Of a stretch of DNA of 64,000 nucleotides, positions 11,798-46,523 are shown in pieces. The notes under the pieces were generated by a model that worked only from the letters and a program-made list of their open reading frames with translations, was not told the DNA's origin and ran no database searches. This DNA is from Acholeplasmataceae bacterium (GTDB lineage Bacteria; Bacillota_I; Bacilli_A; Acholeplasmatales; Acholeplasmataceae), in assembly GCA_023230825.1 (NCBI GenBank), contig JALNWO010000001.1, positions 62,001 to 126,000 on the forward strand, given 5' to 3'. A program made the position numbers and the translations under genes. Every line of letters begins with the position of its first letter. Position 1 is the first letter of the stretch.

Positions 11798-14335
11798 ATG
11801 AGTAAAAAGAACATAACTAGAGTAACCATCATGAGATTAATTAGTCTAGAATTAAAAGACTTTAAACCGTTAAGTGTAAATAGAAAAAGATTCTTTAAAA
11901 TAACCCCTAAGGAAGTTGTCCAAGTTATCTTAGGTACTAACGGTTCAGGTAAGACAAGTATTATTAAAGAGATCGTCCCAGCAGCAGCTAATCCACAACT
12001 CTTTCGTAAAGAAGGACATAAAGAAGCGATCTACTATCACAATAATAAGCACTATAAAATTAGATACGAAGCCAAAACAAATAAACATTTTCTTTTTGAA
12101 GAACAAGAAAGTGGTGAATACAAAAATTTAAATGAAGGAGGTACTTTACGTGTACAGGAAGAAACTGTATTAAGTATCTTTAAAGTAACGCCGTTTATAC
12201 GCAGTGTCTTAATTGGTGAAATGAATTTCTCTGATCTAGGTCCTCAAAAAAGACGGGAATTATTTACTATGATGAGTCCTGTACCTTTTGACTATGGGTT
12301 AGAATTCTTTGCTAAGGCGAAAGATCGTTTAAATGATACAACAGCTATTTTACGCCATAACAAACGTAAACTCATTGATGAAATAGCTAAGGTAATGAAT
12401 GATGAACAGTATGAGAAACTACAAAAAGAAAATAAAGAACTACATCATGAATTATCTATTCTTTTAAGAGAAAGAAATAATCAAATCCAACCCTTAGATA
12501 AACTAAAGAAAGAAGAAACAGATACTTTAGTAGAGATTAGTCGAATTACTGCTACTATCTTTTCGACAAACATCTTAGCTCCCCAAGATAAAAGCTATTC
12601 TTCAATCTCCGATCTACGTGAAGAGATGGTTAAAGAGCGAGAACTTCTCTCTTCATTAAACACACAGTTAAGTGAACGATCTGCTCAATTTGAAAAACTA
12701 TCTAAAGAAGTAGATATTGTTAATCAGAGTGGTGGTCAGGGTATTGAGGATATCAATGCTAAGATAGAAGAATTAGAAAAAGCTAAACAAGTTCTTATTA
12801 GTAAATTACGTAATAAAATTGAACCTCATCAGTACAAGTACATCAAGCAAGGTTTAGATAGCGAAAGTGAGAATTTGTTAAATGAAATCTTCTCTACTTT
12901 ACCTTTAAATGATGATTTACGTTTCTCTAATACAGAATTTAAAAAGTTAAAAGCTGAAGATGATCAATTGATTGAAAAGCTTCGTCAATTGTCTTTAGAT
13001 AGAGATAGACTTAACTTCGAACTCAATGAGTTAGATAAGCATAAAGCTAATGGGAGTATTTCTTGTCCTGAATGTAGACATAGTTGGATTATTGGTTATG
13101 ATCCTCATCAGTACAATAAGAAGAAAACGCAATTAGATGAGACTCTAACTGCTATAACCCAAATTGAAGAGAGAAGAAAAGAATTAGTAAAAGATCTCTC
13201 TGATATGCAGGAATTCTTTAACAAGTATAAAGACTATATCCATATTAGGAATAGGAATAATCACTTAAGTATTCTTTGGGAACAATTAGAGTTTGACAAT
13301 ACTGCTTTTAAATATCCTAGACATGTATTAAGTATCATTGATACATTTCAATCAGATTGTCGTATTGTGAATAACATTCTTGATATTGATGAGAAGTTAA
13401 ATAAAGAACTCACTCTTTTTGAAATGGTTAAGAAAATAGACCAGCAAAAAGTCTCTGAGAATAAAGCAGTCCTAACCCAACTAGAACTGGAAATTAATCA
13501 GATCACTTGGAATATTCGAACTAAAAAAGAATACTTAAATAAGCTGACAGTTTATTATAATAGCCTAGCTAGTCTGATTAATGACGTAAAGCCACGCCTA
13601 GAGTATCTTCAGAGGCATTTAGAGGACCTACAAGGCGATGTAATAGAATCAGTGAGACAAGATATCCTCTCAGATTTAATTCGCTCTCTACAGTCTAAAT
13701 TAGCTTTAAATGAAGACATTTTAAATAAGGTAGATTATCAACGAGGATTAGTAGAGCATCTTCAAAATGAAATTACTCAACTTGAAGTTGAAGAGATTGC
13801 ATTAAAGCGACTTATTGATGAAGTCAGTCCTACAAATGGTTTGATTGCGGAAGGTTTGATGCTTTATATTAATACCATCCTTGACCAAGTCAATCAGATT
13901 ATTGCTAAGGTATGGTCGTATTCATTTAAGATTCTCCCCTGTGAAGTTAAGACAGAAGGAGAAGTAGGTTTAACTTATCGATTCCCTATTGATATTGCAG
14001 ATGGTCTTAATGATATCAAAGATATCGTAGATGGGTCTAAAGCTCAAAAAGAAATTACTAACTTAGCCTTTAGAATTATTGCTATGAATTACTTAGGTTT
14101 TTCAGACGCTTTTCTTTTCTTAGATGAGTTCGGTGATGGGTTTGACCCCACCCACAAAGCGAGTGCTATTCATGCAGTCAATACAATCATTGAACAAATG
14201 AACTTTAGTCAAATCTTTATGGTATCTCACGTAGAAACAAGTTATGGTGCTTTAAAGAATAATGACGTTTGTTTATTAAATGATTTAAACATTCAAGTGC
14301 AAGGTGTTTATAATGAACACGTTGAAATGTATTAA
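11798..14335 (+). CDS. Rad50 / SbcC / T4 gp46-like recombination ATPase
   Basis: An 845-residue SMC-type ATPase. Walker A GTNGSGKT at residues 46-53, two long coiled-coil arms, a zinc hook CPEC at 423-426 in the middle, and a C-terminal ATPase part with FLFLDEFGDGFDP (Walker B Asp776, Glu777) and MVSHVE. With an Mre11/gp47 nuclease it would process DNA ends for recombination-dependent replication or degrade host DNA; that partner is not in this window. A second possible start is ATG 11831 (Met12), which would put the conserved beta strand at the N-terminus. The next gene follows 20 bases later. Confidence 0.9.
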   Translation: MSKKNITRVTIMRLISLELKDFKPLSVNRKRFFKITPKEVVQVILGTNGSGKTSIIKEIVPAAANPQLFRKEGHKEAIYYHNNKHYKIRYEAKTNKHFLFEEQESGEYKNLNEGGTLRVQEETVLSIFKVTPFIRSVLIGEMNFSDLGPQKRRELFTMMSPVPFDYGLEFFAKAKDRLNDTTAILRHNKRKLIDEIAKVMNDEQYEKLQKENKELHHELSILLRERNNQIQPLDKLKKEETDTLVEISRITATIFSTNILAPQDKSYSSISDLREEMVKERELLSSLNTQLSERSAQFEKLSKEVDIVNQSGGQGIEDINAKIEELEKAKQVLISKLRNKIEPHQYKYIKQGLDSESENLLNEIFSTLPLNDDLRFSNTEFKKLKAEDDQLIEKLRQLSLDRDRLNFELNELDKHKANGSISCPECRHSWIIGYDPHQYNKKKTQLDETLTAITQIEERRKELVKDLSDMQEFFNKYKDYIHIRNRNNHLSILWEQLEFDNTAFKYPRHVLSIIDTFQSDCRIVNNILDIDEKLNKELTLFEMVKKIDQQKVSENKAVLTQLELEINQITWNIRTKKEYLNKLTVYYNSLASLINDVKPRLEYLQRHLEDLQGDVIESVRQDILSDLIRSLQSKLALNEDILNKVDYQRGLVEHLQNEITQLEVEEIALKRLIDEVSPTNGLIAEGLMLYINTILDQVNQIIAKVWSYSFKILPCEVKTEGEVGLTYRFPIDIADGLNDIKDIVDGSKAQKEITNLAFRIIAMNYLGFSDAFLFLDEFGDGFDPTHKASAIHAVNTIIEQMNFSQIFMVSHVETSYGALKNNDVCLLNDLNIQVQGVYNEHVEMY

Positions 14336-32300: not shown

Positions 32301-35300
32301 CTAATGATTCCAATATGGATTAAGAAAATAGGAATAAACCTTAACCTTAGCCATTCATCAACGCGAGCATATTCTTCTTCATCATCAATCTCTATTTTTA
32401 AAGCATTAAGAATTTCTCTAGGATCAATCGTGCTTCTTAAACTCGGAATTCCTTCTGGACTAAAGTTTAAATGACTTGTTAATTTATCTTCCAATGCAAA
32501 AATGCGTTCAAAAGCAGAGTCATCTGAACTAAAGCCGTATTGAGCAATTCGATAAGAAGAAACTTCACCAGGTTTTGGCCTAGTTACGTATTTGTAAATA
32601 CTGTAAGCTGCATGTGCTGTTCCTGCTATAGCTAAACCTTTAAGAATGATAGGAGAAGCGATAATGCCAGCAGTAGCACCTAACCCAATACCTAAAGTAC
32701 GTAGAGCAAGACCAAATGCAGGTTTAACTAACCGCATTGCTGCATTATCAACCACTCTACCGACAACACGAGCATTCTTAATTAATCCAACACCTTTCTT
32801 AGCAGCCCATTTACCACCAGCAAAACCTTTACGTAAGCTCTGACCAGAGAATAGTCGCTTGATAAATCCACCAGCTTTTTTAATTGGTTTAATTTTATTA
32901 AGTGTAGCACCTATATTCTTAGTAGCATTCGCTACATTTTTAGCACCAGCTCGTATTGAAGTAGCAGCTTTCTTACCTGTAGCAAGCCCGCCTCTAAAAC
33001 CACCAGGACCTTTAGCAACCTTAGCAGCTCCTCTACCAAAGATCTTACCAAGACCTTTACCTATCGCCTTACCGCCTAATAGACTACCTAAGAGAGAACC
33101 TACAGATCCTAAAGAACTTATTCCTAGCTTACCTAAAATAGCCTTTAGCGCTTTACCTTTTAATCCACCAAATAGATTCCCGAATAAATCATTAAAGATA
33201 TTACTTTGTTCACCCTTTTCTTCACTCTGAGTATCTACTTCATCCGAGACCTCACTAGTAGCTCTACTCATTAAATCTTCGTATGAGCCTTTACGTGGTC
33301 CTTTTTCTCTTTGCTCTCTATCCTTATCGATTTTAAGCATCTCTTTTAATACATCAAGAGTTTGACTTAATTTATCAGTAAGAGAAAGATTCATGGTATC
33401 GATACTGTCAGTGACAGGACTTTCTTCATCCTCTTTAGTCTTCTTACTAAACCAGTTATAGTTACTAGCAAAATCTAACGCTTTATTCTTTAAAGTTTCT
33501 ACGTGGTTTTTAATTGGTCCAAAACCTACACCAACGCCAGAAAGACCCAAAGTAAACCGGCTCTTTTTAATAGCGTTAGTGATTCGAGTAATTCTACTCT
33601 CACCGTCTATTTCTCCTTTCTTGAATCGCTTAAAAGGATTGAGATTATTAAAGACACCTAAACGAGGTGAAGTACTGTCATCATCTTTACTAATGACTTC
33701 TTCTGCATCTTTAACAAATGCTTTAATTTGATCAATGACTTTCTTACCTTCTTCTGTAAGAGGATCTAAATTCGTGACATTGTCTAAGATTTCTTTAAAA
33801 TCAATACCAGATAGTCTACCTTCTATATCAGTCTGAGCTTTCTGATATAAATCTTTAACTTTCTGAACAACATCTTCTTTTTCTAAAAGACGTTTAGCAG
33901 CTTCAGCTTCTGTAATGACATATTCTTTAACTTGTCGTGCTTTTGATCTAGCCTTTACTTTAGCGTCTTGTAAGTTTTTAAAGAATTTACTCTCAGTGAG
34001 TTTTTCTCTACCTTCTCTAACCCGACCTTTTATACTGTATTTATCATCTAAGTTATCAAAGAGTTCCTTAGCGTCTTTAAAGTAATCAGGTTTCTTTACT
34101 TCAGGTAGTTCATCATCATAATCACCATCTACATAAAACTCAATTAAGCGCTTAGGATCAATTCTGCCTTCTTTAATAATACCTGCTTCTTCTAAATAAC
34201 TACTTAAACCAGATTCTACATAGTTCTGAATAACACGATGATTAGAAGAAATAGTACTACCTAAATCTCTAAAACGGTTAGAGAATTCTACTTCACGTTC
34301 TTTAAACTCATCATCCTTATAATACTCTTTAAATAAATCACTAACTGTCTTAGCATCCTCTTCACCTAAATCAGCAAAGAACTCAGCACTACTAAAGTTT
34401 TCTCTAGAAGGTAGGATTTCTCTATAGTTATCACTTAAGAACTTAATAGCTAATCTACGTCTTAACTCAGGATCGAGATTCTCTCCTCCGATTTCATCAA
34501 TTAGATTATAAGCATCGCTCTTTACCCACTTACCACCATCCTTATTGATAATGTCACGAACAATGGATTGTCCGATACTAGAGCTATCTGTAAAACTATT
34601 AGAAGTATAATCGTAAGCTACTAATCCTGCTCTTTCATTACCTGTTCTTAAGATGTGAATTTCACGATGAATCCTAGAGAGTAAACCCGGTATAATCTCA
34701 GTTAAAGATTTAGAGTCCTGTCGTTTCCATACAGCTGGTTTATTAATACTACTGATATTATCTACTGCTATATCTGTACGGGATTTATCGCTTTGAATTA
34801 ATCCACCTAAAATACGAGCAGCAGGTGAAAGTAGTCGATCTTTCTTACCGTATTCTTCTAACCAAGGTTTGTAGTTTCTAGTAATGAAGTTTAACTGCCC
34901 ACCTAATCGCCGAAGTCTTGGTCTTTCATTGAGCTTTTCTTGGATACGCCCACCAAAAGCATGAGCTAAGATAGTTGGTAAGAAACCACCTATCATCTCA
35001 CCAGCCATGCGCTGATTAGACATCCCTCCCAGACCACTCATACCAGACATCATTGATGCACTCGATGCCATCATATCAGCACCGAACAACATAGACTGAA
35101 TACCAGTAGAGACTTCTTTAATAGCCTGACGGCTATTACGCATCATGTTCTCACGCATCTGTTGGAAATCATCAGCACGATTACCAAAGAAACGGTTAAA
35201 GCTTGTTCGCGTAACTCCTTGAGCAAAACGAGCACGAGTATCTTCATGCTGCTCTACTTTTAGTAAGTCAGGCTTTTTAACTTCTTTAATTAATTCAGAT

Positions 35301-36034
35301 AAAGCACTAGCTTGAAGAACTTGAGCTTCTCGCAAAACTTCTAAAGTTTTACCTTGAATAAAGTATTGCTTTAATTGTAATTCTAAACTCTTTCTTTGGA
35401 AGTTAATCTGTAGCTTATCATTATAAGCATTTAAACGACTAACACCTGTAGCAATTTTCTCTAGTTGATTATGAGTGCGAATTTGATGACGGCCTTCTAC
35501 AGCCATTTTTACTGCTTCTCGTGCCTCAGTTCTTACTTCAGCATTTTCATCAGCTTCGACTTGTTCACCAAAGATCTCTTTTAATGTATTACTAATTTGC
35601 TCTTCAAAGACTTGAGTCTCAGTAAGAGAACGTTCTGTTTTCTCTCTATCTCTAGCCCAAGCATCTACTCGACCTTTTACTCCTTTAGGAATATAGTCAC
35701 CAGCTAGATTACTCAAGCTCTCAACAGTACGTTTAACAGGAGAGATGACTTTACTATACTCTTGAACTCCTTCATCGTATAGTTGTTTTACACCCTCTCC
35801 TAACTCCATTAAATCACCGACAGCCTGACCATACCCCACAGGTAAAGTCTTACTAGCGACTGTTCTAGCGGTACTAGAAGAGAGCATAGAACTACCTGCT
35901 CCTGACAGTATGCCCTTCGCAAAGTCTTTAACCTTATCAAATCTAGTCTTAGGCTTGTCGTTAAATAAATCCCCAAACCCATCGTCAAAATTATCGAAAG
36001 GGTCTGTGATAAAATCTTCAGTTTTCTTAACCAT
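29360..36034 (-). CDS. tape-measure-like giant protein with lytic transglycosylase (SLT) domain
   Basis: A 2224-residue protein. The frame is open from 36070, but ATG 36034 (MVKKTED) has GGAG upstream and begins a charged N-terminus, so I chose it. Long coiled-coil and helical regions fill residues 60-1000. A Gly/Ala/Lys-rich basic stretch lies near 960-1110, with hydrophobic spans about 1105-1150. An SLT domain sits at about 1665-1830: ATYIGLESDF with catalytic Glu1688, then SSAMGLGQFIKSTW and AHFLGPGGATSF. It would set tail length, travel into the host and cut peptidoglycan during DNA entry. It is divergent from the RNAP beta' gene. Confidence 0.8.
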   Translation of the reverse strand: MVKKTEDFITDPFDNFDDGFGDLFNDKPKTRFDKVKDFAKGILSGAGSSMLSSSTARTVASKTLPVGYGQAVGDLMELGEGVKQLYDEGVQEYSKVISPVKRTVESLSNLAGDYIPKGVKGRVDAWARDREKTERSLTETQVFEEQISNTLKEIFGEQVEADENAEVRTEAREAVKMAVEGRHQIRTHNQLEKIATGVSRLNAYNDKLQINFQRKSLELQLKQYFIQGKTLEVLREAQVLQASALSELIKEVKKPDLLKVEQHEDTRARFAQGVTRTSFNRFFGNRADDFQQMRENMMRNSRQAIKEVSTGIQSMLFGADMMASSASMMSGMSGLGGMSNQRMAGEMIGGFLPTILAHAFGGRIQEKLNERPRLRRLGGQLNFITRNYKPWLEEYGKKDRLLSPAARILGGLIQSDKSRTDIAVDNISSINKPAVWKRQDSKSLTEIIPGLLSRIHREIHILRTGNERAGLVAYDYTSNSFTDSSSIGQSIVRDIINKDGGKWVKSDAYNLIDEIGGENLDPELRRRLAIKFLSDNYREILPSRENFSSAEFFADLGEEDAKTVSDLFKEYYKDDEFKEREVEFSNRFRDLGSTISSNHRVIQNYVESGLSSYLEEAGIIKEGRIDPKRLIEFYVDGDYDDELPEVKKPDYFKDAKELFDNLDDKYSIKGRVREGREKLTESKFFKNLQDAKVKARSKARQVKEYVITEAEAAKRLLEKEDVVQKVKDLYQKAQTDIEGRLSGIDFKEILDNVTNLDPLTEEGKKVIDQIKAFVKDAEEVISKDDDSTSPRLGVFNNLNPFKRFKKGEIDGESRITRITNAIKKSRFTLGLSGVGVGFGPIKNHVETLKNKALDFASNYNWFSKKTKEDEESPVTDSIDTMNLSLTDKLSQTLDVLKEMLKIDKDREQREKGPRKGSYEDLMSRATSEVSDEVDTQSEEKGEQSNIFNDLFGNLFGGLKGKALKAILGKLGISSLGSVGSLLGSLLGGKAIGKGLGKIFGRGAAKVAKGPGGFRGGLATGKKAATSIRAGAKNVANATKNIGATLNKIKPIKKAGGFIKRLFSGQSLRKGFAGGKWAAKKGVGLIKNARVVGRVVDNAAMRLVKPAFGLALRTLGIGLGATAGIIASPIILKGLAIAGTAHAAYSIYKYVTRPKPGEVSSYRIAQYGFSSDDSAFERIFALEDKLTSHLNFSPEGIPSLRSTIDPREILNALKIEIDDEEEYARVDEWLRLRFIPIFLIHIGIISRIAGNTDLQKVDKLKPEDKIRYHQATRFKNGPYEVDSNPFSEKPLVMGPVEVDSIWNEVDKKLSTKIGNKKRAELLKEQSANPEDKATEQPKKEGEESKEADPKLLHGQSVKEAGKTITSSYASKVELINNRVPSYIKAVDAVRFKTYGLSEFTLSKVKILRELESYCTEGLRVQDNETVIWEGDLSSVHETFLPHFGISSPSSERAALFNRWFSLRFLPVYTTAASIIQQKTKSNLVQYQLDMMGASDRLEFARIVSSVMTTVDGIKVSVWSITDSPWDDIELNTDSKTVEINIKAIEKEASDTKLNQEQALNTTSSSTKAALSTFIPQEQSNVRGLGSPINRTEAHASGADHGSMYRTKSEPQVYGIHGQVSGFGLPGEDRGALPTDLGEVSLGKGTDTKYEGIPLPTGDNSYLHYKDMIDGVAKAAGVSATDLATYIGLESDFRNQARPGTSSAMGLGQFIKSTWEAMIKRYGGKYGLQPGVSRLDPIANSLMTAEYMKENHKTLTNNFPNRKISMLDLYLAHFLGPGGATSFLKAMGNNPGAVAAQLLPKAANANKWVFYDKETRRPRTFADIINYFQSRIRSVRKRHLGIKAGTETGHFPPPDTHSGVILPATGSSEGINTSISESNVPTVAPETVSRSSTLPLGGSIIPKEDGGRDPSEYRSEVGANVNVSTPSDNPLGGTGITSNRIQGHDPRTSVGENNISTKTTLTLSLTRTTTKEKVMVGKLQLSNGEVFSTIELSDNFKPGTYELIPSVNKSQGSVYEIWSGNNKVGVLSSGNGSNADQTVSRNNEIIIGQLINKQAGDVTIRNSLTAFNTLMSKIGDNKVRFSVTGGNLTTTAEKAVEENKGRVGIYPSEDKRTGMPTALGNQSITGLMPETMYQQAAAKQQTDKDLHLEAMTKSRDIAQEQLTVLQSMSKDISKISHALSKDSMTELFSKVSGLNKPTTPEEAAYFNRQRNKDNWPTPIVNTRRNI

Positions 36035-36106
36035 GTAAGAAAGCTCCGTTATTTTAATATTCAATAGCACTCTATATATGAGTGTTTCTCAATTAGAGGT
36101 CATAAC

Positions 36107-37573
36107 ATGTCTGTGTCTAATCTAGACAAAGCATTTAATATTAGTATTCTCTATCTAACACCATTGAATCTAAGAGGCTTAGGATTAATCGATACACTGG
36201 ATACTTACGATGTAAATGGTGAGTTCAGTGATCGTGGTCTTTACTCTATTGATTACTTTGGTCCAGTAGGAGATCTACGACGTTCTCGTCGACTTGCATA
36301 TATTGATATCAAGATGGAGGTTATTCATCCTCTTATCTATAAATCCTTAGTAAAACTAAAAGGCTTTTACGAAGATATTATCCTAGGTAAGAAATATGCT
36401 ATTTGGAATAAACTCACTAAAGACTTCGAACCAGCAGATGCATTAACTGGTCAAACTGGTTTTAATTTCTTTCTTAATCACTGGATGGATATTGATCTCG
36501 TTAGAAATAAGAGTACAGCTAGAAACGAGAGAGTTACTTTTATTGAGAATAATAAAAGTAAAGCACTTACTAATAAAATCCTAGTTATTCCAGCAGGTAT
36601 TAGGGACATGACAGTAGGTGCAGATGGTAGACCAGTTAGTGATGAGATCAATAATATCTACCGTCGATTAATTGGGGTATCAAACACTATTACTGAAGCA
36701 GCTATTGAACACAACCCAGAACTCTTTGATAATTCTCGATTACGATTACAATTAGTCTTTAATGAGTTATATGAGTATATTACCCAATTACTTAAAGGAA
36801 AAAAGAAACTCATTACAGGGAAGCTAACCTCACGTAGAATCCATAATGGGACTTCAAACGTTATTAGTGCTTATATCCCTACAGTAAAGCGCTTAGGTGA
36901 GCCAGGATCTATCTCAGTTAATAATACCATTGTAGGATTACAACAATTCTTAGTCTCTATTGGTCAAACAGCTAAGTATTATATTAAGAATGGTCCATTA
37001 AAAGAAGTATTCATCTCTCCTGACCTACCAGCTCGACTCATTAACAAAAAGACACTAGAGCAAGAAGAAGTCGATATCTCTATTGAAGCTTATGATTACT
37101 GGATGTCAAATGAAGGTCTTGATAGAGTACTCAGTGAATTTGCTAATGGTAATATCAGACACCAGCCTGTTGAGATTGAAGATCATTATGTCGCTTTGAT
37201 TTATAAAGGACCTGATAATACTTTTAAAATCTTCTACGATATTAGAGAATTACCTGCTAACTTCTCTAAGAAGTATGTTAGTCCTATTACGCTATTAGAA
37301 CTCCTATACCTCTCTGTTTATGAGACTTCAGCACAATACCCAGCCTTCACTACTCGCTATCCCGTATCAGGAGATGGCTCAATCTATCCTTCTTTCTCTT
37401 ATGTTAAAACAACAGTGAAGTCTGAGAAGAGATATCCTCTAAATGAAGTATGGCAAAAAGACGATACTCTACCTATTGCTTTTGAGTTCCCTTTACTTAA
37501 TTCGAGTTTCTACGATACTCTGACTCCACACACTTCGAGGCTTGCTGGTCTCGGCGCTGATTATGATGGTGAT
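36107..37573 (+). CDS. RNA polymerase beta' subunit N-terminal half, exon 1
   Basis: 489 codons of an RpoC-type N-terminal half. In order: FSDRGLYSIDYFGPVGDL matches the RpoC GLFCARIFGPVKD region; LTNKILVIPAGIRDM matches the VLPVLPPDLRP segment; LTGKLTSRRIHNGTSNVISA matches the [20 protein letters not shown] region; and the exon ends in GADYDGD (residues 483-489), equal to the catalytic NADFDGD with Asp485, Asp487 and Asp489 binding Mg. The continuous frame runs to a stop at 37603, but residues after 37573 do not match RpoC. The intron starts exactly after Asp489. Exon 2 restores the RpoC alignment. The start has AGAGG before ATG. Confidence 0.82.
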
Positions 37574-38206
37574 AACGCCTTAGCCCTTATTTATAAGGGA
37601 TAATTCAAGAAAAGTGTATAACACCTTATCCTAGTAGTATGAAAGTCGTTAAAAACTTTTATAACTTATATAGATAATGTCGAAGCTTTTACTAATAAAA
37701 ATACTCAAAGTAATTTTATTAACCATATACATTTTTCATTATTATTCCTTATTTATATTACGTCACCTATTAGTAGAAATACTAATACAATAAACCTCTT
37801 TAATTGACGGGAAAAGACTGTTAAAGTCTATCTACCAAGCTATGCATTGGAAACAACATAGTGGCTGAACTAATCACTCAGGTAAGGTAATAAAGATAGA
37901 ACTGGTTTAATCCGCAGCGAAGCTCCTAGAGATACTTTCTATAAGTATACGGAGTGCGTTCAACGACTAATGAAAGGCGTGTGTTAATTATAACACTAAA
38001 CCGAGTAAAGTAGCGCCTAGTGGTAGGGTGTGTAGATTGAGAATGGGTCTACACAGTAAAACCCTTTAAAGCGAAATGGGAGGCACCTGACTGCTATTGT
38101 TAGAATAGTAAAAGGTGAAGATATAGTCTGAGCGTCTAGGGAAAGCCTAGAGTAGTAGTTATCTTAACTACGGGTATAGATTAACGAGCTATACTGAACA
38201 TAACTG
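37574..38206 (+). ncRNA. group I self-splicing intron in RNAP beta' gene (633 nt)
   Basis: Conserved group I core elements appear in order: P (AATTGACGGGAA, from 37802), Q (AATCCGCAGC, about 37909), R (GTTCAACGACTA, about 37959) and S (AAGATATAGTC, about 38119). R GACTA pairs with S TAGTC as P7. The guide sequence GTCACC at 37762-37767 pairs with exon bases GGTGAT (37568-37573), giving the required U-G pair at the 5' splice site. The intron ends with G38206, and splicing joins codon GAT to AGA, restoring the beta' reading frame. No ORF of useful length lies inside, so there is no homing endonuclease; the P1 loop is unusually long (188 bases). Confidence 0.88.
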
Positions 38207-38368
38207 AGAATGTCATTTAATGCTTTATATACCGATGAAGCAAAAGAAGAAATACGGAAATTCTTAACTGAACCTAGAGCATATTTAAATACTAATGGTG
38301 AATTAAGAATGAGTGCTTCTTTCCCCACTATTGATTTAGTACTCTATAACCTAACTTCTAGGAAGTAG
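38207..38368 (+). CDS. RNA polymerase beta' subunit N-terminal half, exon 2
   Basis: 53 codons plus stop. After splicing, the protein reads GADYDGD-RMSFNALYTDEAKEEIRK, which lines up with RpoC [25 protein letters not shown] without a gap. AYLNTNGELRMSASFPTIDLVLYNL then matches the [25 protein letters not shown] region. The protein stops soon after (total 542 residues), as in giant phages that encode beta' as two polypeptides. The C-terminal half (bridge helix, trigger loop) is not in this window. The beta gene starts 8 bases downstream. Confidence 0.82.
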   Translation, partial: RMSFNALYTDEAKEEIRKFLTEPRAYLNTNGELRMSASFPTIDLVLYNLTSRK

Positions 38369-38376
38369 AAAAAGAA

Positions 38377-41300
38377 ATGTTAATTTACGATACTTATTAT
38401 AAACGCAGAGCTTCTTTTCGATTAGGTCAGATTGCTTCTCCTAGGAAAAATCCTTTAGAGACGATGGAAATGCCTAAAGGTTCCGTTTACCATTACTTAG
38501 GTGAAAGTGCTACACAAGTAGGTCCACCTGAAGATCTCTACATCTATCGAGCAGTTAGTGATCCTATTCAAATGAATGTGGTCTCTAGTTATAGTACTGA
38601 TTTTGAATGGAGAGGTAATCCTACTGTATTAGGTAGGAATATTCAATCTGATATTGCTAAGTACTTACGACTGCATCGACGCTATCGTCGTTTCCCTGAA
38701 GTCAGTAAGATCAAAGGTACACCTCATATTCAGTTACTTATTAACTACGCTAACATTAATAAGAGTTATCGATATATCCAAAATCGATACTCTAGTTATA
38801 ATGCTTGGTATAATAAGTTTGCTAGTGTATTAAGTAATGTTAATGAAGTAGCTACTAAGACTAATAGACAACAGTTCTTAATCTTTAGTTTACCTGAATT
38901 TATTCCTAGTGCTTCGCATCTACTCATAGCAGAAGGTCAAGCTGTTATTACAGGTAACTTATTAAATAGCTTTAGCTCTAATGAAAGTAGAGTTATTTTA
39001 GAGTTGTGGAAGTGGTTAAGTGAAGCTAGAACTAATTCATTGTTTAATCTGATTAGTCCTCAGAACTACGATAAAGTCAACATCATCTTCCAGGACATGG
39101 GAGTATGGGTGGGTTATCGGTTAGATTCATTAAATAACTTTAGACTCCCTAGTAAGGAAGAATTAAAAGCTTATGAAGATGATCCTACTGGTAAAGTTGA
39201 GCCTAATACTAAAGGTATTCTACCTGACTTATTAAAACGTACTTTCTTACGTGGATTAACTACTGTTACTAAGTTTAGGAATGGGGAGTTAATTGAAGAA
39301 GAAGAAGAACAAGATGTACTTGATGATGAGTTAGATGAAGAAGAAGATATTCAAGTACTCGATAAGGATGCTTCAGGTAATGCCGTTGTCTCTAGTCTGA
39401 AAAACATTAAAAAGAGTTTAGATGAAGCTGAAGCTTCTCGTGCTGAAAAAGAAGTCTTATCTCGTATTCAATCTATCGAACGAGAGTTAGAAAAAAGAAA
39501 TGAGGCGAGTGACTTTATCAGTACTATCGATGGTATTGATTTAGAAGAGTTTAGTAATCTCATTGATGAGGATCTTAGTGCTTTAGATAAAATCAATGAG
39601 AGATTGGTTTTAAATAAAGAAGTGGTGGGTCATTCTACGGTAGGTACTGGTTTAGGTGAACTAACTGAAAGAAATAAGAACCTACCTAATACCTTTGAAG
39701 ATGGGTTAATGCGTATTGCTACAGACTATGCTGAAGCTGGTTTGTTATCTGCTACGGATTACCAACGCTTTGTTAGGCATAGTGAAGCTTATAAGTCAAT
39801 TAAGATGCCTAATGGACAGACATTAGAAGAGTATATTCAGATCGATAAGAAAGACTTAGAGATCGATTATAATAAACCCGTTCCTTCTGTTGATACTGTT
39901 AATGATCCTAGCTTGATTGGTTCTACAATGGTAGAGTTTAACCGTAAGTATAATACGGAGCTTCTCTATAAAGACATTGCTAGGATGGTTCTAAATATGC
40001 AGTTCGGTGGCGTAGCTGTCACTAACATGAATATCTACAAGCAAGAAACTGTCTTAGGTAGTAATTACGTTTATGAAGTTAGGTTAGTTCCCGTAGATGG
40101 AGAGCCTGGTACGGTTCGCTTTACGATTCCAGAAGTATCTAAAGACGGTACATTTAGAATCAATGGTGTGAAGTATCGGTTTAGAACTCAGCAAGCGGCT
40201 CAATTACCTATTAAGAAAACAGCTCCGTATCAAGTAGCATTAACAAGTTACTACGGGAAGCTCTTTATTAATCGAACACAAAGAAAGGTTAATGATTACG
40301 GTAGTTGGATTACTCGCTACATTAAAATGGAAGCATTAGAAGGGACAACAGATAAGATTCGTGATGTAGAGACCTTTCCTACTTTCAAAGCTAATGTTAA
40401 GCGTCCTAGAATCTTTACTATCTTAGCTCAGACTTTTAAACAGTTCTCTGTTAAAGTAGATGCATTATCAGAAAGACTTTCTTTTGTTTTAGATGAAGAC
40501 ATCTTAAAAGAGAAAGACCCTACTACTTATAATGCTCTTGTAGATGAAGGGTTTATTCCTTGTGGTATTGTAGGTAATGATTTCTTAGTTGTTAATATTA
40601 ACAATGAATTCTTTATCAATCGAAAAGAAGGTAAAGAGGACATTGGTACTATTGAAACTATTTTAGACTTAGATATTCGAAAAGCACCTATCGAATATAT
40701 TGAAGCAGGCATTAGTGGTAAAGACATCCCTGTTGGTTTCATGTTAGGTTTAGAGATGGGTTTAGAGCAACTCATTGTCTTACTTCAACCTAGGATTCGA
40801 CGTGTTCCTAAAGGTCAGTCTGTTAAACTTGAAGATGATGAGTATCGTTTAATTTTTGAAGATGAAACATTAGTCTTTAATAAAAACGATAAGACGGCTA
40901 CTTTACTCTTAGCTGGCTTTACTAAGTTTCACCGTAGCCTACGCCTTTATACAGTTAATGATTTCAATAGTGTTGCTGCTTATATTAACGTATTAGAAGA
41001 ACATGGGATGACTTCCCGTATTGCTGCAAGTATTGATACGCTTAATAAACTCTTTATTGACCCTATCATTAGAGAGTTATTAGTAGATATGAATGAACCT
41101 ACTCATTTTAGAGGCTTGCTACTGCGTTGTGCTGAGCTATTGGTGGATGATTATGTCCCTGATGTAAAAGACCGTGTACGGGGCTATGAGAGGTTTGCAG
41201 GGGCTGTTTATAGTGAGCTAATCAAAGCTTATCGTGCTCATCAGTTTAAACCTTCTCGTTTTAAGCAACCTATTGATATGGCTCCCTTTACTGTATTCAA

Positions 41301-41634
41301 TAACATCAGTACTGATCCAGCTAAACTCTTAGTTCACGATATCAATCCAGTAGAAGACGCTAAGCAAATTGATGCTTTGTCTTATACAGGTTCAGGTGGT
41401 CGTAGTAGTCGTTCTATGACTAAAGAGACGCGTCTTTATACTGATAAGGATCAAGGTCTAGTTTCTGAATCTACGGTTGATTCTGCTAAAGTAGCTATTA
41501 ATAACTACAGTTCAGCAAAGCCTAAGTTAACTAGTGTACGTGGTACTTATGAGCAATTCAATTTAGAAGAAGATGGTGTAGGTAGCTTAATTAGTACTGC
41601 TGCCTCATTATCTCCTTACGTGCTGTACGATGAT
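38377..41634 (+). CDS. RNA polymerase beta subunit, exon 1
   Basis: 1086 codons of an RpoB-like subunit. GTFRINGVKYRFRTQQAAQLP matches the RpoB FIINGTERVIVSQL region; TGSGGRSSRSMTKETRLYTDKDQGLVS followed by ESTVDSAKVAI matches GPGGLTRERAGFEVRDVH and ETPEGPNIGLI; the exon ends in SLSPYVLYDD, equal to SLIPFLEHDD. An acidic insertion with long Glu/Asp runs at about residues 306-335 has no RpoB counterpart. The frame continues only three bases to TAA at 41635-41637; the intron starts at 41635. With exon 2 the protein is 1463 residues. Start: ATG just 8 bases after the beta' stop, with a weak AAAAAGAA site. Confidence 0.82.
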
Positions 41635-42004
41635 TAACAATTAAATAATATTTGTATATTGTTTAACTAGTCCACTTAGTTAGTAATAACTAATGTGAAT
41701 GCTTCTTAATTGCTGGGAAAGGCTTAGAGCTAAAGTAACCACTGCGAGACGAAAGTCAAAGCCAAGGTTTGAAAATACTTTAGATTGCTCAATCAGCAGC
41801 GGAGATTCTACGTCTTATTATTTATAGTAAGATATGAATAGCGTTCAACGATCAATCCCTTATCAGGATGTAGGTCACAAGTGTGATCCAAACAGAAGCC
41901 TTCCTAATCACTAGGAAGAAGATATGATCTAGACATCTAGGGAAAGCCTAGAGCTGCAAGTAAAGTTGCGGGTTAGTCCTAACGAGACTAATTGAATACA
42001 ATCG
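41635..42004 (+). ncRNA. group I self-splicing intron in RNAP beta gene (370 nt)
   Basis: Core elements in order: P (TTAATTGCTGGGAA, about 41706), Q (AATCAGCAGC, about 41791), R (GTTCAACGATCA, about 41842), S (AAGATATGATC, about 41919). P7 is GATCA with TGATC; relative to the beta' intron both strands changed together, which supports the fold. The P4 partners GCTG and CAGC also changed together. Proposed guide GTAAT (41683-41687) pairs with the exon end ATGAT with one G-A mismatch and the U-G pair, extended by TAAC/GTTA. The intron ends at G42004; splicing joins GAT to GGA in frame. A block TCTAGGGAAAGCCTAGAG is shared with the other intron. No ORF inside. Confidence 0.85.
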
Positions 42005-43138
42005 GGAAAAAGGGTCTCCTTTATCGGGGTCCAGCACGGTCATGGAATTGCATGTACAGGGTATACTGCTCCTGTAGTTAGGACAGGTAAAGAAGCTAGC
42101 TTAGCTCAACAAACTAGTGAAGTGTTTGCTAAAGCTGCTGAACAAGACGGTGAAGTTATCTCTGTTAAACCAGAAGGTATTATTGTTCGCTACGCAGATG
42201 GTAGTGAAGAAGGCTATCCTTGTGGGAAAGTCTTTGGTAATAGTGCTTCATTATCTTTTCCTTTTAACATTGTAAGTAATGTTAGTAAAGGAGAGGTATT
42301 TAAAGCAGGAGATATTCTCACGTATAATACGGAGTTCTTCACTAAAGATACATTAGCTAGAAATACTGTTGTCTGGAAGAATGCTGTGCAAGTAAACGTA
42401 GCTTTAGTTGAAGTACCTTCTACTTATGAAGATGCTTCAGCCATTACTCAACGCTTAGCTAGTAAACTTACTTCTAAGATCTCAGAACCTATTAACATCA
42501 CTGTTCGGTTTAACCAAGCTATTCATGACTTAGTTAAAGTAGGTGATAAAGTTAAAGCTGATGACCATCTTTGTGTTATTGAAGATGAAGTTACAGCAGG
42601 TAGTGATCTTTTCGATCAGGACTCCTTAGATAACTTACGCATTCTGCGCTCTCAAACACCTCGTGCTAAAGTCGATGGTGTTGTAGATAAGATCGAGGTC
42701 TTCTATAATGGCGAGCTTGAGGAGATGTCAGAATCATTAGCTGAAGTAGCGATGGCTGCTGATAAACGTTTAGCTAAAGAGTTATCTTCAGTAGGTAAGA
42801 AGCCCATGACAGGTTCTACCTTAGGAGAGAGCTATCGTATTGAGGGTAATGTTTTACAGTTAGATGAACTTGTTATTCGTGTTCATGTTACTGAAGACAA
42901 AGGGATGGGTAATGGTGATAAAGCCGTATTTGCTAACCAGTTAAAAACTATTATCTCTGAAGTATTACCTGATCCTGTTCAAACAGAATCTGGCGTAGAG
43001 GTAGATGCTTTATTTGGTATTAAGTCAGTCGGTAACCGTATCGTTAACTCACCTTACGATATTGGTATTGATGCTAGACTCATGACTAAAGCAACTGAGC
43101 GAGCTATTGCTGCTTATACCACTCCTATTAAAGGTTGA
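42005..43138 (+). CDS. RNA polymerase beta subunit, exon 2
   Basis: 377 codons plus stop. Spliced sequence YDD-GKRVSFIGVQHGHGIA matches RpoB HDD-ANRALMGANMQRQAVP. TAPVVRTGKEASLAQQTSEVF then matches PLVGTGMERAVAVDSG; VPSTYEDASAI matches GYNFEDSILV with the Glu-Asp pair kept; and VTEDKGMGNGDKAVFANQL matches GDKMAGRHGNKGVISKI. It ends at LFGIKSVGNRIVNSP, the NPLGVPSRMNIGQ region, so the usual final ~200 residues of beta are missing (see 17926-18591). An internal GTG at 42122 would drop conserved residues, so translation from it is unlikely. A terminator follows. Confidence 0.82.
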   Translation, partial: GKRVSFIGVQHGHGIACTGYTAPVVRTGKEASLAQQTSEVFAKAAEQDGEVISVKPEGIIVRYADGSEEGYPCGKVFGNSASLSFPFNIVSNVSKGEVFKAGDILTYNTEFFTKDTLARNTVVWKNAVQVNVALVEVPSTYEDASAITQRLASKLTSKISEPINITVRFNQAIHDLVKVGDKVKADDHLCVIEDEVTAGSDLFDQDSLDNLRILRSQTPRAKVDGVVDKIEVFYNGELEEMSESLAEVAMAADKRLAKELSSVGKKPMTGSTLGESYRIEGNVLQLDELVIRVHVTEDKGMGNGDKAVFANQLKTIISEVLPDPVQTESGVEVDALFGIKSVGNRIVNSPYDIGIDARLMTKATERAIAAYTTPIKG

Positions 43139-43151
43139 TATTAATTATAGT

Positions 43152-43195
43152 AGAAAGAGGTTCCTTTTATCAGGAGTCTCTTTCTTTTTTTTTTA
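43152..43195 (+). terminator. intrinsic terminator after RNAP beta
   Basis: AGAAAGAGGTTCC pairs with GGAGTCTCTTTCT around TTTTATCA, followed by a run of T. Confidence 0.8.
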
Positions 43196-43279
43196 AGCCT
43201 TTAGAGGGTTTAGGTTAAATAAGTCTTTTAAACCTATGAGATAATATAAACAGTCCCTTAGCTTAAGGATATTTTTAAA

Positions 43280-43492
43280 ATGAAGAAAGTAGATAGAGAA
43301 CACACCACTCTCCAAACATTATCAACAGCTGTTGAATTTGGATTAGGTGTAGCTCAAGAAGTTTTAACAGGTAGTGACTTAGGTTCTTTCTTAAGTAAGA
43401 ATGGTCGCACTAACCTAGCCCAACAAATGTTAACTGATATTCAAACTAAATTTAATAAAGAATTAGGAGCTGCTCAATATGCTAAGCGATAA
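43280..43492 (+). CDS. hypothetical protein (70 aa)
   Basis: A 70-residue helical protein with AAGGA upstream; basic N-terminus and a Gln/Ala-rich C-terminus. Its 3' end overlaps the 490-aa gene by 14 bases, indicating coupled translation. Together with the following structural genes it heads a unit ending at 46529. Function unknown. Confidence 0.6.
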   Translation: MKKVDREHTTLQTLSTAVEFGLGVAQEVLTGSDLGSFLSKNGRTNLAQQMLTDIQTKFNKELGAAQYAKR

Positions 43493-44951
43493 AATTGTTA
43501 AAGCTAGTATTCCACTTACAGCTCTTTGGACTGAAAATGATTTAGTAGCCACTGCATACGAAGGCTCTCCATTAGCTTTACTAATTCATCATCAATTAGA
43601 AAAGAATATTCAAAGTAATGTTTTTTATGCTTCAAATAAAGACTTTGGTAATTCTGATTTAGAAACTCGTTTAACGACTATTGCTAATAATCTAGCTAAC
43701 ATCGGTTCTCTCAATGGTGTTGAGTCTGTAACGGGTATTGATACTAACCAAGTCTTAGATACGCATATTAGTGCTGCTGCTGGTAAGATTAAACAACATA
43801 TCAGTATTATTAAAAACGTCGTTAAACCTGCTGTTATGGATTTAATTGAACGTATTAATGCTGCTTTAAAATCCGTTACTAATGAATCGATCTTAGATGT
43901 AGAGATTATTCAGTTTGAAGTCCCTAAGAGTTTTTCTAATAACTTCTTTGTAGCACCTCTTGGTAAGTACCAAGATAAGGATAATGCAATTCCTTATAAG
44001 TTAGTTGGTTTACCTAATTTAGACTGGACTACTTTAGTTGAGAAATTAGCGATTGGTGATTCTGAAGTTGATGACGAAAACTTAAGCTTTATTCTGTCTG
44101 CTGGTAAAGAAAACATCCAGCAACTATTTGATTCTGTTTTTGGTAATGGACAATCTCCAGTTAAAACTAATAAGAATATTGGTGATTTCTTAAAAGATAG
44201 TAAGTTTAACACCCAATACAACTTAGCGATGTATCTGTGGGCTAATAACTTTTTTGATAATCCAGTAGAAGGCACTAATGCTACCTTAATTGATTACAAT
44301 AATCAATTAGCAGCTATTCGTGAAATGGCAGGTGCTAATTTACAGCGATTAGTACAAGTACATCAAAGTAACTTAGAAAGTAAAGTCTTAGTTAAAAGCT
44401 TTGGTGATGGTTATGTTGAAGTCTATTCCAACGTATATGAAGACTTTTTAGAAAATGGTGGAGTGCCAGAAGCATTACTGGGTCTGATCTACTCTGATAG
44501 CAAGTCTTATACGTACGATAATATCATTGCTCGTACTGCTGAATTAGAGCGTATTTGGAATACTCAAGTCGGTAGTCTTAAGCTCAATGAAAAAGCTCGT
44601 CGGGCTAACTTTATTTATCGTATTGCTCTAGCTTCGTTTCATGAACAGATGTTAGAGGAGCAAGACGGACAAGCAGGACTGGATAATAACATCCTCTCTA
44701 TTTTAGAGAAAGCACGTAATATTCTAGACGCTCTTCGTCCTGAAGAACTCAATAATATCACTGAAGTCTCTTTACTGTTAGAGTGTAGAGCGCGTTTTCC
44801 TAACACGGCTTCTGAGCAATTCTTACGAGATATTGTTGATGTAGTGGCTGATTGTCCTGATACTGATGTAGAAGAAGCTGCTGCTGTAGCTACTCTGCGT
44901 TATATTACGACTTGGATCTCAAACCAACTCTCAGTTAAATACGCACGTTAA
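43479..44951 (+). CDS. virion structural protein (490 aa)
   Basis: A 490-residue soluble helical protein. It contains LDWTTLVEKLAIGDSE near residue 185 and a long helical C-terminal half. It precedes another structural candidate and the prohead protease by tens of bases, so it is probably a head protein, scaffold component or internal head protein processed by that protease. No recognised family. Confidence 0.6.
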   Translation: MLSDKIVKASIPLTALWTENDLVATAYEGSPLALLIHHQLEKNIQSNVFYASNKDFGNSDLETRLTTIANNLANIGSLNGVESVTGIDTNQVLDTHISAAAGKIKQHISIIKNVVKPAVMDLIERINAALKSVTNESILDVEIIQFEVPKSFSNNFFVAPLGKYQDKDNAIPYKLVGLPNLDWTTLVEKLAIGDSEVDDENLSFILSAGKENIQQLFDSVFGNGQSPVKTNKNIGDFLKDSKFNTQYNLAMYLWANNFFDNPVEGTNATLIDYNNQLAAIREMAGANLQRLVQVHQSNLESKVLVKSFGDGYVEVYSNVYEDFLENGGVPEALLGLIYSDSKSYTYDNIIARTAELERIWNTQVGSLKLNEKARRANFIYRIALASFHEQMLEEQDGQAGLDNNILSILEKARNILDALRPEELNNITEVSLLLECRARFPNTASEQFLRDIVDVVADCPDTDVEEAAAVATLRYITTWISNQLSVKYAR

Positions 44952-44965
44952 TAAAAAAGCTAATT

Positions 44966-45688
44966 ATGGATATTTCTACTTTAAAAAGAGATCCAGCATT
45001 AGTAACCAGTAAACTCATCAGTAGTGGCGATCAATACTTAGCCAAAGAAAGAATTAAGATCATGATTCCTGCTTTCTATGAAGCAAAGCAATTAATGACT
45101 TATGGTACAGAAACGTACTTTCTTGGTTTTTATTGTATCATCACTGCTGATGGTCATTATGCTATTGACATTGCTCCGACTATGATTCAAACTGAACCTA
45201 GTCAAATCACCCGTGTAGATATTGATGATATGGAATATATTGTCATGATCTATGATAAAGGTGATGCAGTTATTGCTAATGATAACGTTGTAAAAAACGA
45301 AGCTATTGGTTACGCTGTCTTTAACGAGATTCTCTCTAAAGGGTTATTCCCTTGGTGGATGACTTATGAAGATGCTGCTAAAGTATTTTCTAAAATGCGA
45401 GAATTCACAGGCTCTTCTGTAGGCGATAACCGAGTACTTTATGAAGTTATTATCTCTACATTAGCGCGAGATCCTGATAATAAATCATTACAATATCGAC
45501 AAGGCTTTAGTAATAAAGCAGAACTAATTTCTAGACCTCCTTCTTGGGCACCGTTACGAAGCGTTCAGTACTCAGCTACTAACACCGTAGCTAAAATATC
45601 AGGTAGTTATTTTGAGGAAGGTGTTATTAGTGCTATTAATGACCCTACTGATCGAATCGAGCGTGGTGAGAAAATCCTAAGACTTTAA
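44966..45688 (+). CDS. virion structural protein (240 aa)
   Basis: A 240-residue protein with a beta-rich first half (TYFLGFYCIITADGHYAIDIAP) and a helical second half ending in a Lys/Arg-rich tail. 14 bases after the previous gene and 19 before the protease. This pattern is common in head-assembly operons of large phages, but I do not recognise the family. Confidence 0.55.
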   Translation: MDISTLKRDPALVTSKLISSGDQYLAKERIKIMIPAFYEAKQLMTYGTETYFLGFYCIITADGHYAIDIAPTMIQTEPSQITRVDIDDMEYIVMIYDKGDAVIANDNVVKNEAIGYAVFNEILSKGLFPWWMTYEDAAKVFSKMREFTGSSVGDNRVLYEVIISTLARDPDNKSLQYRQGFSNKAELISRPPSWAPLRSVQYSATNTVAKISGSYFEEGVISAINDPTDRIERGEKILRL

Positions 45689-45707
45689 CTAAGAGAAAAA
45701 AATAAAC

Positions 45708-46523
45708 ATGCTTAATTCGATTGTGTTTGAATGCACAGCTATGAGAGGGCTAAATAAGAAAGGCATTATTCCAGCAATGGATGAGTACGGCTATAGAAAA
45801 GTCGTACTCGGTGCTTTAAATGTATTTAGTCGTAAAGGTGAATACTACGCTTTAGAAGGTGCTGAAGATCTATTTAAGAATAGTTCTATCTTCATGAGGA
45901 AAGTAGAAGGCGAAGCATTACGAGGAGAGTTAGGTCATCCTATTCCTACTCCTGGTATGTCTGAGGAACAATTCTCTATTCGTATTCGTCAGGTCATTGA
46001 ACCTCGTATCTGTTTACATATTCGTCGTGTCTGGTTAGATCACACTAATGTAAAAGACGATATGGGTAGGACTGTCATTGCTATTATGGGTGAAGTCGCT
46101 CCTAGTGGTGAATTGGGTCATATCCTAGAGAAAGCGTTTAATAATCCTTATGAGAACGTGGCTTTCTCTATTCGTTGTTTCTCTGATGTAGACCGCTCCT
46201 TTGGCGGAGCTGTTACTCGTAAGATGCGAGAGATTGTGACTTGGGATTATGTATCTGAACCTGGAATTAAAGTAGCAGATAAATATTACAGTCCTTCTCT
46301 AGAAAATAACGATATTATCCTACCTAAAAAGCAAGAGATTTTAAGAGCTGATACAGTAGATAACCTGATCAATCGAAAATACTCTAGAAGTTTCTTAAGG
46401 AAAGTAAGTGAAAATAAAGATCTTACTTATTCTGAAGAATCTGTATTTTTAACAACTGATGAGTTATTTACTAGCTTAGGTTGGAATAATGTAGAGAAAC
46501 CACCCGCTTTCCATAATTGGTAA
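45708..46523 (+). CDS. prohead protease (T4 gp21-like)
   Basis: A 271-residue serine protease of the phage capsid-maturation type, which removes scaffold and trims head proteins after prohead assembly. EGEALRGELGHPIPTPGM (about residues 68-85) holds the likely catalytic His in GELGHP. ENVAFSIRCFSD (about 146-157) holds the likely nucleophile Ser. GEVAPSGELGHILEKAF lies between. The C-terminal 80 residues are more variable, perhaps the part released on activation. It ends the unit with two structural genes upstream. Confidence 0.75.
   Translation: MLNSIVFECTAMRGLNKKGIIPAMDEYGYRKVVLGALNVFSRKGEYYALEGAEDLFKNSSIFMRKVEGEALRGELGHPIPTPGMSEEQFSIRIRQVIEPRICLHIRRVWLDHTNVKDDMGRTVIAIMGEVAPSGELGHILEKAFNNPYENVAFSIRCFSDVDRSFGGAVTRKMREIVTWDYVSEPGIKVADKYYSPSLENNDIILPKKQEILRADTVDNLINRKYSRSFLRKVSENKDLTYSEESVFLTTDELFTSLGWNNVEKPPAFHNW

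What the first reader, a model, noticed from the sequence alone, without database searches (positions are those of the whole stretch)
37568..38209. Group I intron inserted immediately after the third catalytic aspartate codon of RNAP beta'
The exon ends in GAT for Asp489 of GADYDGD, and the intron begins at the next base. Splicing to AGA at 38207 restores the RpoC alignment with no gap. The guide GTCACC at 37762 pairs with the last six exon bases with the U-G pair. The intron places the ribozyme at the most conserved DNA of the gene, which protects it from loss and makes functional RNAP depend on splicing. Bacillus jumbo phage AR9 is known to have introns in RNAP genes (established); the position in the active-site codon here is seen directly.
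Basis: partly seen in the sequence, partly recalled or inferred. Interest (0 to 1): 0.85.

Follow-up and report, generated by a model that had tools for sequence, protein, structure and literature searches.

The report
Intron in phage polymerase's active-site motif
A giant phage's RNA polymerase gene is interrupted by a probably self-splicing intron right after a codon for one of the enzyme's catalytic amino acids, and related phages carry similar introns after each of the three catalytic codons, so this short stretch of DNA is a recurrent landing site.

Summary
A group I intron without an open reading frame of note (37574-38206, 633 nt) follows the third aspartate codon of DxDGD in a phiKZ-like virion RNA polymerase (RNAP) beta' gene (RF00028, 60.8 bits). 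It has a 6-bp guide pairing, U at -1 and a terminal G, and skipping it continues the conserved frame.
The interpretation needs widening. Of 121 scorable sequence clusters of this gene, 29 are interrupted inside the 15-nt motif; none was seen interrupted upstream. The 34 introns sit +0, +1, +2, +6, +9 or +12 nt from the first aspartate codon. Five loci have two introns around a 6-, 9- or 12-nt exon. phiKZ gp180 has such an intron, holding HNH gene gp179. Vibrio phage VP4B shares the window's site; its relative pTD1 is uninterrupted.
The first aspartate codon is GAT in 19 of 19 site-A loci but 9 of 92 intact clusters, so the required U falls on a silent base. Introns at one site are not one lineage.
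The intron itself is a new member of a known kind. The multi-site hot spot with microexons was not found in ten paper searches. No RNA was examined; splicing is inferred.

The parts
36107..37573 (+). beta' exon 1 of the phage virion RNA polymerase (489 codons), ending GADYDGD
   Evidence: PHROG 2986 RNA polymerase beta subunit, E 7.5e-168; tblastn to 290 phage records
37568..37573 (+). 5' strand of P1, last six exon bases GGUGAU; U at -1
   Evidence: pairs with 37762-37767
37574..38206 (+). group I intron, 633 nt, no open reading frame of note, last base G
   Evidence: RF00028 60.8 bits; boundaries
37574..37761 (+). P1 loop, 188 nt; in phiKZ the endonuclease gene lies in the corresponding stretch; no remnant recognised here
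   Evidence: six-frame reading; tblastn of 9 intron ORFs of relatives, no hit to this intron at E 1 or to the window at E 0.1
37762..37767 (+). internal guide sequence GUCACC
37958..37969 (+). GUUCAACGACUA, holding the P7 5' strand (GACUA)
38118..38129 (+). AAGAUAUAGUCU, holding the P7 3' strand (UAGUC)
38207..38368 (+). beta' exon 2 (53 codons and stop), RMSFNALYTDEA...LTSRK
   Evidence: tblastn with intact relatives; frame and stop
38377..41634 (+). beta subunit exon 1, ending ...SPYVLYDD
   Evidence: tblastn to 290 phage records
41635..42004 (+). second group I intron, 370 nt, after the two aspartates of beta: the insertion point described for PhiPA3
   Evidence: RF00028 65.6 bits; exon 2 GKRVSF against AKRVNF of FLC9; PhiPA3 site from PMC11620839 passages
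42005..43138 (+). beta exon 2 (378 codons with stop)
   Evidence: translation

Best explanation
The insert is a self-splicing group I intron in the beta' gene of the virion RNA polymerase of a phiKZ-like giant phage. It sits after the third aspartate codon of DxDGD. Its guide GUCACC pairs with GGUGAU at the exon end. A guanosine cofactor cuts after that U, exon 1 attacks after the terminal G, and the joined message reads DGD-RMSF. It is one of many related introns that have entered this 15-nt stretch repeatedly, mostly directly after an aspartate codon, where the U.G pair needed at the splice site falls on the silent third base. In most of them a GUC able to pair with GAU, as an anticodon would, lies at a fixed place upstream of the core. 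The insertion pattern is shown from sequence. Splicing, the guide assignment in the relatives, and movement by homing endonucleases (the window copy has none) are inferred.
For: Covariance-model match 60.8 bits. Frame continues with no gap. Guide as the longest candidate and in the free fold. P7 pairs 5 of 5 in 34 of 35 introns, in four versions (the script took the best placement). All 34 motif introns have U at -1 and end in G; where the boundary could slide, that rule chose it. Empty alleles: pTD1 is uninterrupted, and its DNA match to VP4B resumes at VP4B 6047, the junction set earlier; pTD1 has GAC where VP4B has GAT. L137 against L151, 92-94% identical: a 1299-nt insert, and GAC against GAT. 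GAT at the first aspartate in 19 of 19 site-A loci against 9 of 92 intact clusters (Fisher 6e-15), with no significant shift at the other two aspartates; GAT at the third aspartate in 7 of 7 site-C loci against 38 of 92 (p 0.003). Hot spot: 29 of 121 scorable clusters, none seen interrupted upstream.
Against: No RNA evidence for the window or for any relative. The window intron carries no endonuclease gene and no recognisable remnant, so its own mobility is not supported. Nine of the 34 introns miss the RF00028 gathering score: seven score 28-50 bits, one of them (L214) found but not at E 0.01; two (L091_C, L094_C) have no match at E 0.01. A GUC at the fixed distance was found in 26 of 32 introns, and in 17 of those 26 it pairs only three bases with the exon; several of these introns have longer guide candidates elsewhere (VP4B 6, L247 7, L040_A 9 pairs). 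The window is among the six misses because that script placed its core wrongly; its GUC lies 40 nt upstream of the core. P10 is weak or absent in the window by eye. The codon test is not corrected for relatedness of the phages.
Confidence: 0.93

Rival explanations
1. A dead group I intron: the core remains but no longer splices, and the phage makes a truncated beta' ending NALALIYKG, with exon 2 unused or encoded elsewhere.
For: No endonuclease gene; jumbo-phage RNAP genes are naturally split (PMC7598289 passages).
Against: P1, P7, the U at -1 and the terminal G are intact; exon 2 is still in frame and conserved; the truncated product would lack the 45 or more residues that follow the motif in the 194 loci scored as intact.
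Confidence: 0.04
2. Trans-acting mobility: the intron is kept mobile by an endonuclease encoded elsewhere in the phage, as a minimised form of the HNH-bearing introns.
For: Copies without an endonuclease gene are common; OMKO1 keeps both ends of a deleted phiKZ-type gene, and L073 and L091 keep the end of an L094-type gene at the window's site.
Against: No relative of the nine intron ORFs was detected in the 64-kb window; no whole genome is held, so the rest of the phage is unseen.
Confidence: 0.2
3. One ancient insertion at each site, inherited vertically and often lost, rather than repeated insertion.
For: Some same-site introns are sisters: L073_C with L094_C, LucasX with L081 and L148. One clade of window_C, L073_C and L094_C alone is not rejected (p 0.27).
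Against: The AU test rejects one clade for the seven site-C introns (p 0.005) and for 18 site-A introns (p 0.0002). L091_C groups with L172_A (100/100) and L040_C with L040_A (96/91), both well supported; window_C with the site-A intron L063_A at 93/98, just short of the program's mark.
Confidence: 0.08

Closest known systems
PhiPA3 gp210 intron in the virion RNAP beta gene (Birkholz 2024, PMC11620839; passages seen)
   Same: Putative group I intron in a phiKZ-like virion RNAP gene, directly after conserved aspartates; the window's second intron occupies that beta site
   Different: beta, not beta'; encodes an HNH nicking endonuclease shown to act on phiKZ; the window's beta' intron has no endonuclease
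phiKZ gp180/gp179 (found here in NC_004629)
   Same: Group I intron in DxDGD of the same gene, with RF00028 at 92 bits
   Different: After the first aspartate, 12 nt upstream; carries gp179, which matches Pfam HNH_3 at E 7e-9. The original phiKZ papers could not be read, so prior recognition is open
Vibrio phage VP4B beta' (NC_042136)
   Same: Intron at the identical nucleotide of the motif, no annotated gene inside it, and an intron-free relative (pTD1)
   Different: Intron sequences are not close: VP4B_C is not among the best five matches of window_C
Twort orf142 introns 2 and 3 (PMC10136302 passages)
   Same: Two group I introns around a very short exon
   Different: 23-nt exon with reported exon skipping; the relatives here have 6-, 9- and 12-nt exons that hold catalytic codons, and no RNA data

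Membership tests
Group I intron | Conserved catalytic core (P3-P8, P4-P6, P7) by covariance model | tested here: met
   RF00028 60.8 bits, full model 1-253
Group I intron | P7 pairing (guanosine site) | tested here: met
   GACUA/UAGUC, 5 of 5; varies together across relatives
Group I intron | P1 guide with U.G at the 5' splice site | tested here: met
   GGUGAU x GUCACC
Group I intron | Terminal G of the intron | tested here: met
   G at 38206
Group I intron | Removal restores the host gene's frame | tested here: met
Group I intron | Self-splicing activity | not testable with these tools
   needs RNA work
Mobile (homing) group I intron | Encodes a homing endonuclease | tested here: not met
   no ORF of note; no remnant recognised
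Mobile (homing) group I intron | Empty allele in a close relative | tested here: inconclusive
   no close DNA relative of the window found; met for VP4B/pTD1 at the same site
PhiPA3-type virion RNAP beta intron | Inserted after the two aspartates of beta | tested here: met
   window intron 2 at 41635-42004; this is not the beta' intron of the finding

The most novel reading that the evidence does not exclude
The catalytic motif of phage multisubunit RNA polymerase beta' is a multi-site landing strip for one pool of group I introns. The guide GUC reads an aspartate codon as an anticodon would, the obligatory U sits on the wobble base, and introns move between the aspartate codons (and between beta' and beta) within and between genomes. 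Where two land together they leave coding microexons of 6, 9 or 12 nt that hold catalytic residues. If such an exon were skipped, as reported for Twort's 23-nt exon, the result would be an in-frame polymerase lacking one or more of its metal-binding aspartates.
Probability: 0.5. Interest if true: 0.78.

Novelty: new member of a known kind. Interest (0 to 1): 0.62.

Why it matters
It turns a single intron into a testable rule for where group I introns settle: after codons whose third base can silently become U, in the DNA that a polymerase can least afford to change. It supplies natural pairs with and without the intron at a catalytic codon (VP4B/pTD1, L151/L137). It also shows that phiKZ, whose uninterrupted beta gene is the target in the PhiPA3 competition work, has its own HNH-bearing intron in the beta' gene of the same polymerase, while PhiPA3 is uninterrupted there. 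That predicts a reciprocal contest and conflicts with a printed statement that of the two only PhiPA3 has an intron in an RNAP gene (PMC11878797, passage).

Tried and rejected
Whole-genome context: no genome is held for the window. Megablast of window 34000-46000 against phages: no match. Exon-2 protein alignment: two calls failed on my coordinates; exon 2 was then located by tblastn in scripts. The PDB sequence search of exon 1 gave nothing. An intein and a frameshift were considered and dropped: the insert has stops in all six frames. A descent of site-C introns from one insertion was rejected for the seven (p 0.005) and for the five C-only ones (p 0.02), but not for window_C with L073_C and L094_C alone (p 0.27). 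Rows set aside before counts: L118/L225 and L093 (contig ends); L163 (ADVDGD, uninterrupted, missed by the pattern; counted as scorable and not interrupted, but not among the 92 intact clusters of the codon test); L004 and L008 in the codon test (phiKZ-like counted once) and in the tree; L162_A from the tree (too long). L151_A was not among the introns searched for endonuclease ORFs.

Limits: four viral-contig scans were made; the first gave one locus. Scans with A2 and A3 were seeded partly (A2) or mostly (A3) with intron-bearing genes and kept 80 of 187 and 80 of 125 relatives, so 29 of 121 is not a natural frequency. The A1 scan, which kept 80 of 198 and whose seed also included four intron-bearing genes of seven, gave 13 of 80 loci, 11 of 70 clusters. 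The frame upstream was checked on one member per cluster. The tree is weakly resolved: 9 of 38 inner branches are well supported and the bootstrap had not settled.

Full report
WHAT IS THERE. The beta' reading frame 36107-37603 runs to GADYDGD (Asp489, GAT 37571-37573) and then stops after nine intron codons. Exon 2 starts at 38207 (AGA) and gives RMSFNALYTDEAKEEIRKFL...LTSRK, with stop TAG at 38366-38368. Between them lies a 633-nt intron with no open reading frame of note. RF00028 matches 37745-38152 over the full model at 60.8 bits, E 6e-13. The only other Rfam hit in 64 kb at gathering scores is a second group I intron at 41648-41953 in the adjacent beta gene. The guide GTCACC at 37762 pairs six bases with GGTGAT; the next best candidate in the 120 nt upstream of the core has two pairs, and P1 appears in the unconstrained fold (z -4.2, 20 shuffles). 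The exact intron is 37574-38206.

WHICH GENE. Exon 1 is PHROG 2986, RNA polymerase beta subunit (E 7.5e-168). It finds 290 phage records, best Burkholderia phage FLC9 at 45%, and the adjacent beta gene finds 290 records. The arrangement (large minus-strand structural gene, beta', beta) is that of phiKZ gp181-180-178. The beta intron, 41635-42004, lies after SPYVLYDD and before GKRVSF; FLC9 reads DKDDAKRVNF uninterrupted. [quoted passage not shown]

HOW OFTEN. Four viral-contig scans plus phage records gave 247 loci and the window. They fall into 123 clusters at 95% identity, 121 of them scorable. Of these, 29 are interrupted inside the motif. In one member per cluster, the frame upstream is open for at least 430 codons in 121 of 123; the other two are contigs that begin or end inside the gene. 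The scans favour relatives of intron-bearing seeds; the A1 scan alone gave 13 of 80 loci, 11 of 70 clusters.

WHERE. Thirty-four introns in 29 loci were placed. Directly after the first aspartate (+0): 21, including phiKZ, OMKO1, Wadjak 2 and LucasX. +1: L057 and L214. +2: L024. After the second aspartate (+6): L053 and L064. After the glycine (+9): L172. After the third aspartate (+12): window, VP4B, L073, L091, L094, L040 and L186. Five loci hold two introns around a coding microexon: TTCGAT (6 nt; L053, L064), TTTGACGGT (9 nt; L172), TTCGACGGAGAT (L040) and TTCGACGGCGAT (L186) (12 nt). L186 also appears to have an 11-nt exon between two beta introns, by eye. Of the 34, RF00028 reaches its gathering score in 25 and scores 28-50 bits in seven; L091_C and L094_C have no match at E 0.01. 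P7 is fully paired in 34 of 35 introns (these plus the window's beta intron; the exception is L247_A), in four versions.

NATURAL CONTROLS. pTD1 is uninterrupted...GGCGAC|CAATTAAAC. Its alignment with VP4B (83% and 80% identity) resumes at VP4B 6047, the junction set by the terminal-G rule before pTD1 was fetched; VP4B has GAT where pTD1 has GAC. L151 carries a 1299-nt insert relative to L137 (94% and 93% identity), again GAT against GAC. Across loci, the first aspartate codon is GAT in 19 of 19 site-A loci (phiKZ-like counted once) and in 9 of 92 intact clusters (6e-15). In the 14 loci with a single site-A intron, GAT at the second (6 of 14 against 33 of 92) and third (9 of 14 against 38 of 92) aspartates does not differ significantly from intact genes. 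At site C the third aspartate is GAT in 7 of 7 against 38 of 92 (p 0.003). These tests take the loci as independent, which some are not.

WHY THERE. In 31 of 34 introns the splice site falls after a complete codon, so the needed U is a third base, silent in the aspartate and glycine codons concerned. A GUC, which can pair with GAU with U.G at the cut, lies 30-45 nt upstream of the core in 26 of 32 introns whose core was placed, against 16% of random 18-nt stretches. Against this, 17 of the 26 pair only three bases with the exon, and some introns have longer candidates elsewhere, so the guide is not settled for the relatives. In L057 and L024, whose first aspartate is GAC, GUC still faces GAC but the guide starts one or two bases earlier and the splice site sits one or two bases later, on the U's of the next codon. 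This is inference from pattern, but it would account for the positions together.

HISTORY. In a tree of 41 intron cores (350 columns; 31 of the 34 motif introns and ten beta introns) site-C introns do not form a group: one clade is rejected at p 0.005, and for 18 site-A introns at p 0.0002. L040_A pairs with L040_C in the same gene (96/91) and L091_C with L172_A (100/100); window_C pairs with the site-A intron L063_A (93/98, just short of the mark). Nine of 38 inner branches are well supported. Introns have therefore probably moved between sites. Large ORFs sit in the introns of phiKZ, Wadjak 2, L094, L172, L024, L051, L063, L092 and L162. Of seven tested, five match Pfam HNH_3 above its cut-off (phiKZ, L172, L024, L063, L092), L094 matches NUMOD1 and an I-HmuI NUMOD-like domain, and L162 has only sub-threshold matches. 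L051 was not tested; the Wadjak 2 gene is annotated HNH. Remnants sit in OMKO1, L073, L091 and L040. None was seen in the window intron or elsewhere in the window.

BEYOND THIS GENE. The three RF00028 introns of phiKZ all lie in RNAP genes: gp180 (with gp179), gp55 (with gp56, annotated HNH; exon 2 begins ADFDGD) and gp71/gp73 (with gp72 between them). VP4B and LucasX have a second intron at or just before the motif of another RNAP beta' gene, which I take for the non-virion one from its place beside the nuclear shell gene in VP4B. The annotated phiKZ gp180 ends LGAD-stop, yet a paper states that Gp180 contains DFDGD (PMC10612078 passages). That is true only of a spliced product.

LITERATURE. 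Ten full-text searches (listings) and passages of ten papers showed me no description of introns at DxDGD of a phage RNAP or of 6-12-nt exons between group I introns. Short exons of 23 nt (Twort) and 34 nt (Coxiella) are described (PMC10136302). One paper calls phiKZ179 the counterpart of the PhiPA3 endonuclease (PMC12571901). Original phiKZ, 201phi2-1 and AR9 papers were not read; I recall that phiKZ gp71-73 is written as one subunit because it is spliced, so part of this may already be known. The 201phi2-1 record itself notes a beta gene interrupted by a mobile element.

VERDICT. A genuine group I intron in the most conserved codons of a phage RNAP, ordinary in kind. It is part of a recurrent and tightly constrained insertion hot spot that is worth reporting. 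Splicing remains to be shown.

Noticed in passing
41635-42004: Second group I intron, in the beta gene after the double aspartate, the PhiPA3 site.
   Followed up: yes
L007 5031-8126 (phiKZ gp180/gp179): phiKZ itself has an HNH-bearing group I intron (92 bits) in the virion beta' gene, in conflict with a printed statement that of phiKZ and PhiPA3 only PhiPA3 has an intron in an RNAP gene (PMC11878797).
   Followed up: yes
L249 3169-4540 and L250 2960-4120 (phiKZ gp55-gp56 and gp71-gp73): The other two RF00028 hits of phiKZ lie in further RNAP genes: directly before ADFDGD in gp55, and between FHGG and KGV in gp71/gp73 (which I recall as the conserved HGNKG region of beta). The second range is approximate.
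   Followed up: partly
L251 4015-4400 (VP4B) and L252 3952-4362 (LucasX): Introns within (VP4B, after the glycine codon) or just before (LucasX) the DxDGD codons of a second RNAP beta' gene.
   Followed up: partly
L186 6938-7751 and 11542-12219: A metagenomic phage with four introns in its virion RNAP genes: a 12-nt exon in beta' and, by eye, an 11-nt exon in beta.
   Followed up: partly
L008 6501-6981 (OMKO1): Both ends of a phiKZ gp179-like gene remain around a deletion (the 3' end at E 1e-8, the 5' end only weakly, E 0.15): endonuclease loss with the intron kept.
   Followed up: yes
11798-14335: 845-aa protein with a weak SMC_N match (E 2.9e-7, below Pfam's cut-off).
   Followed up: no
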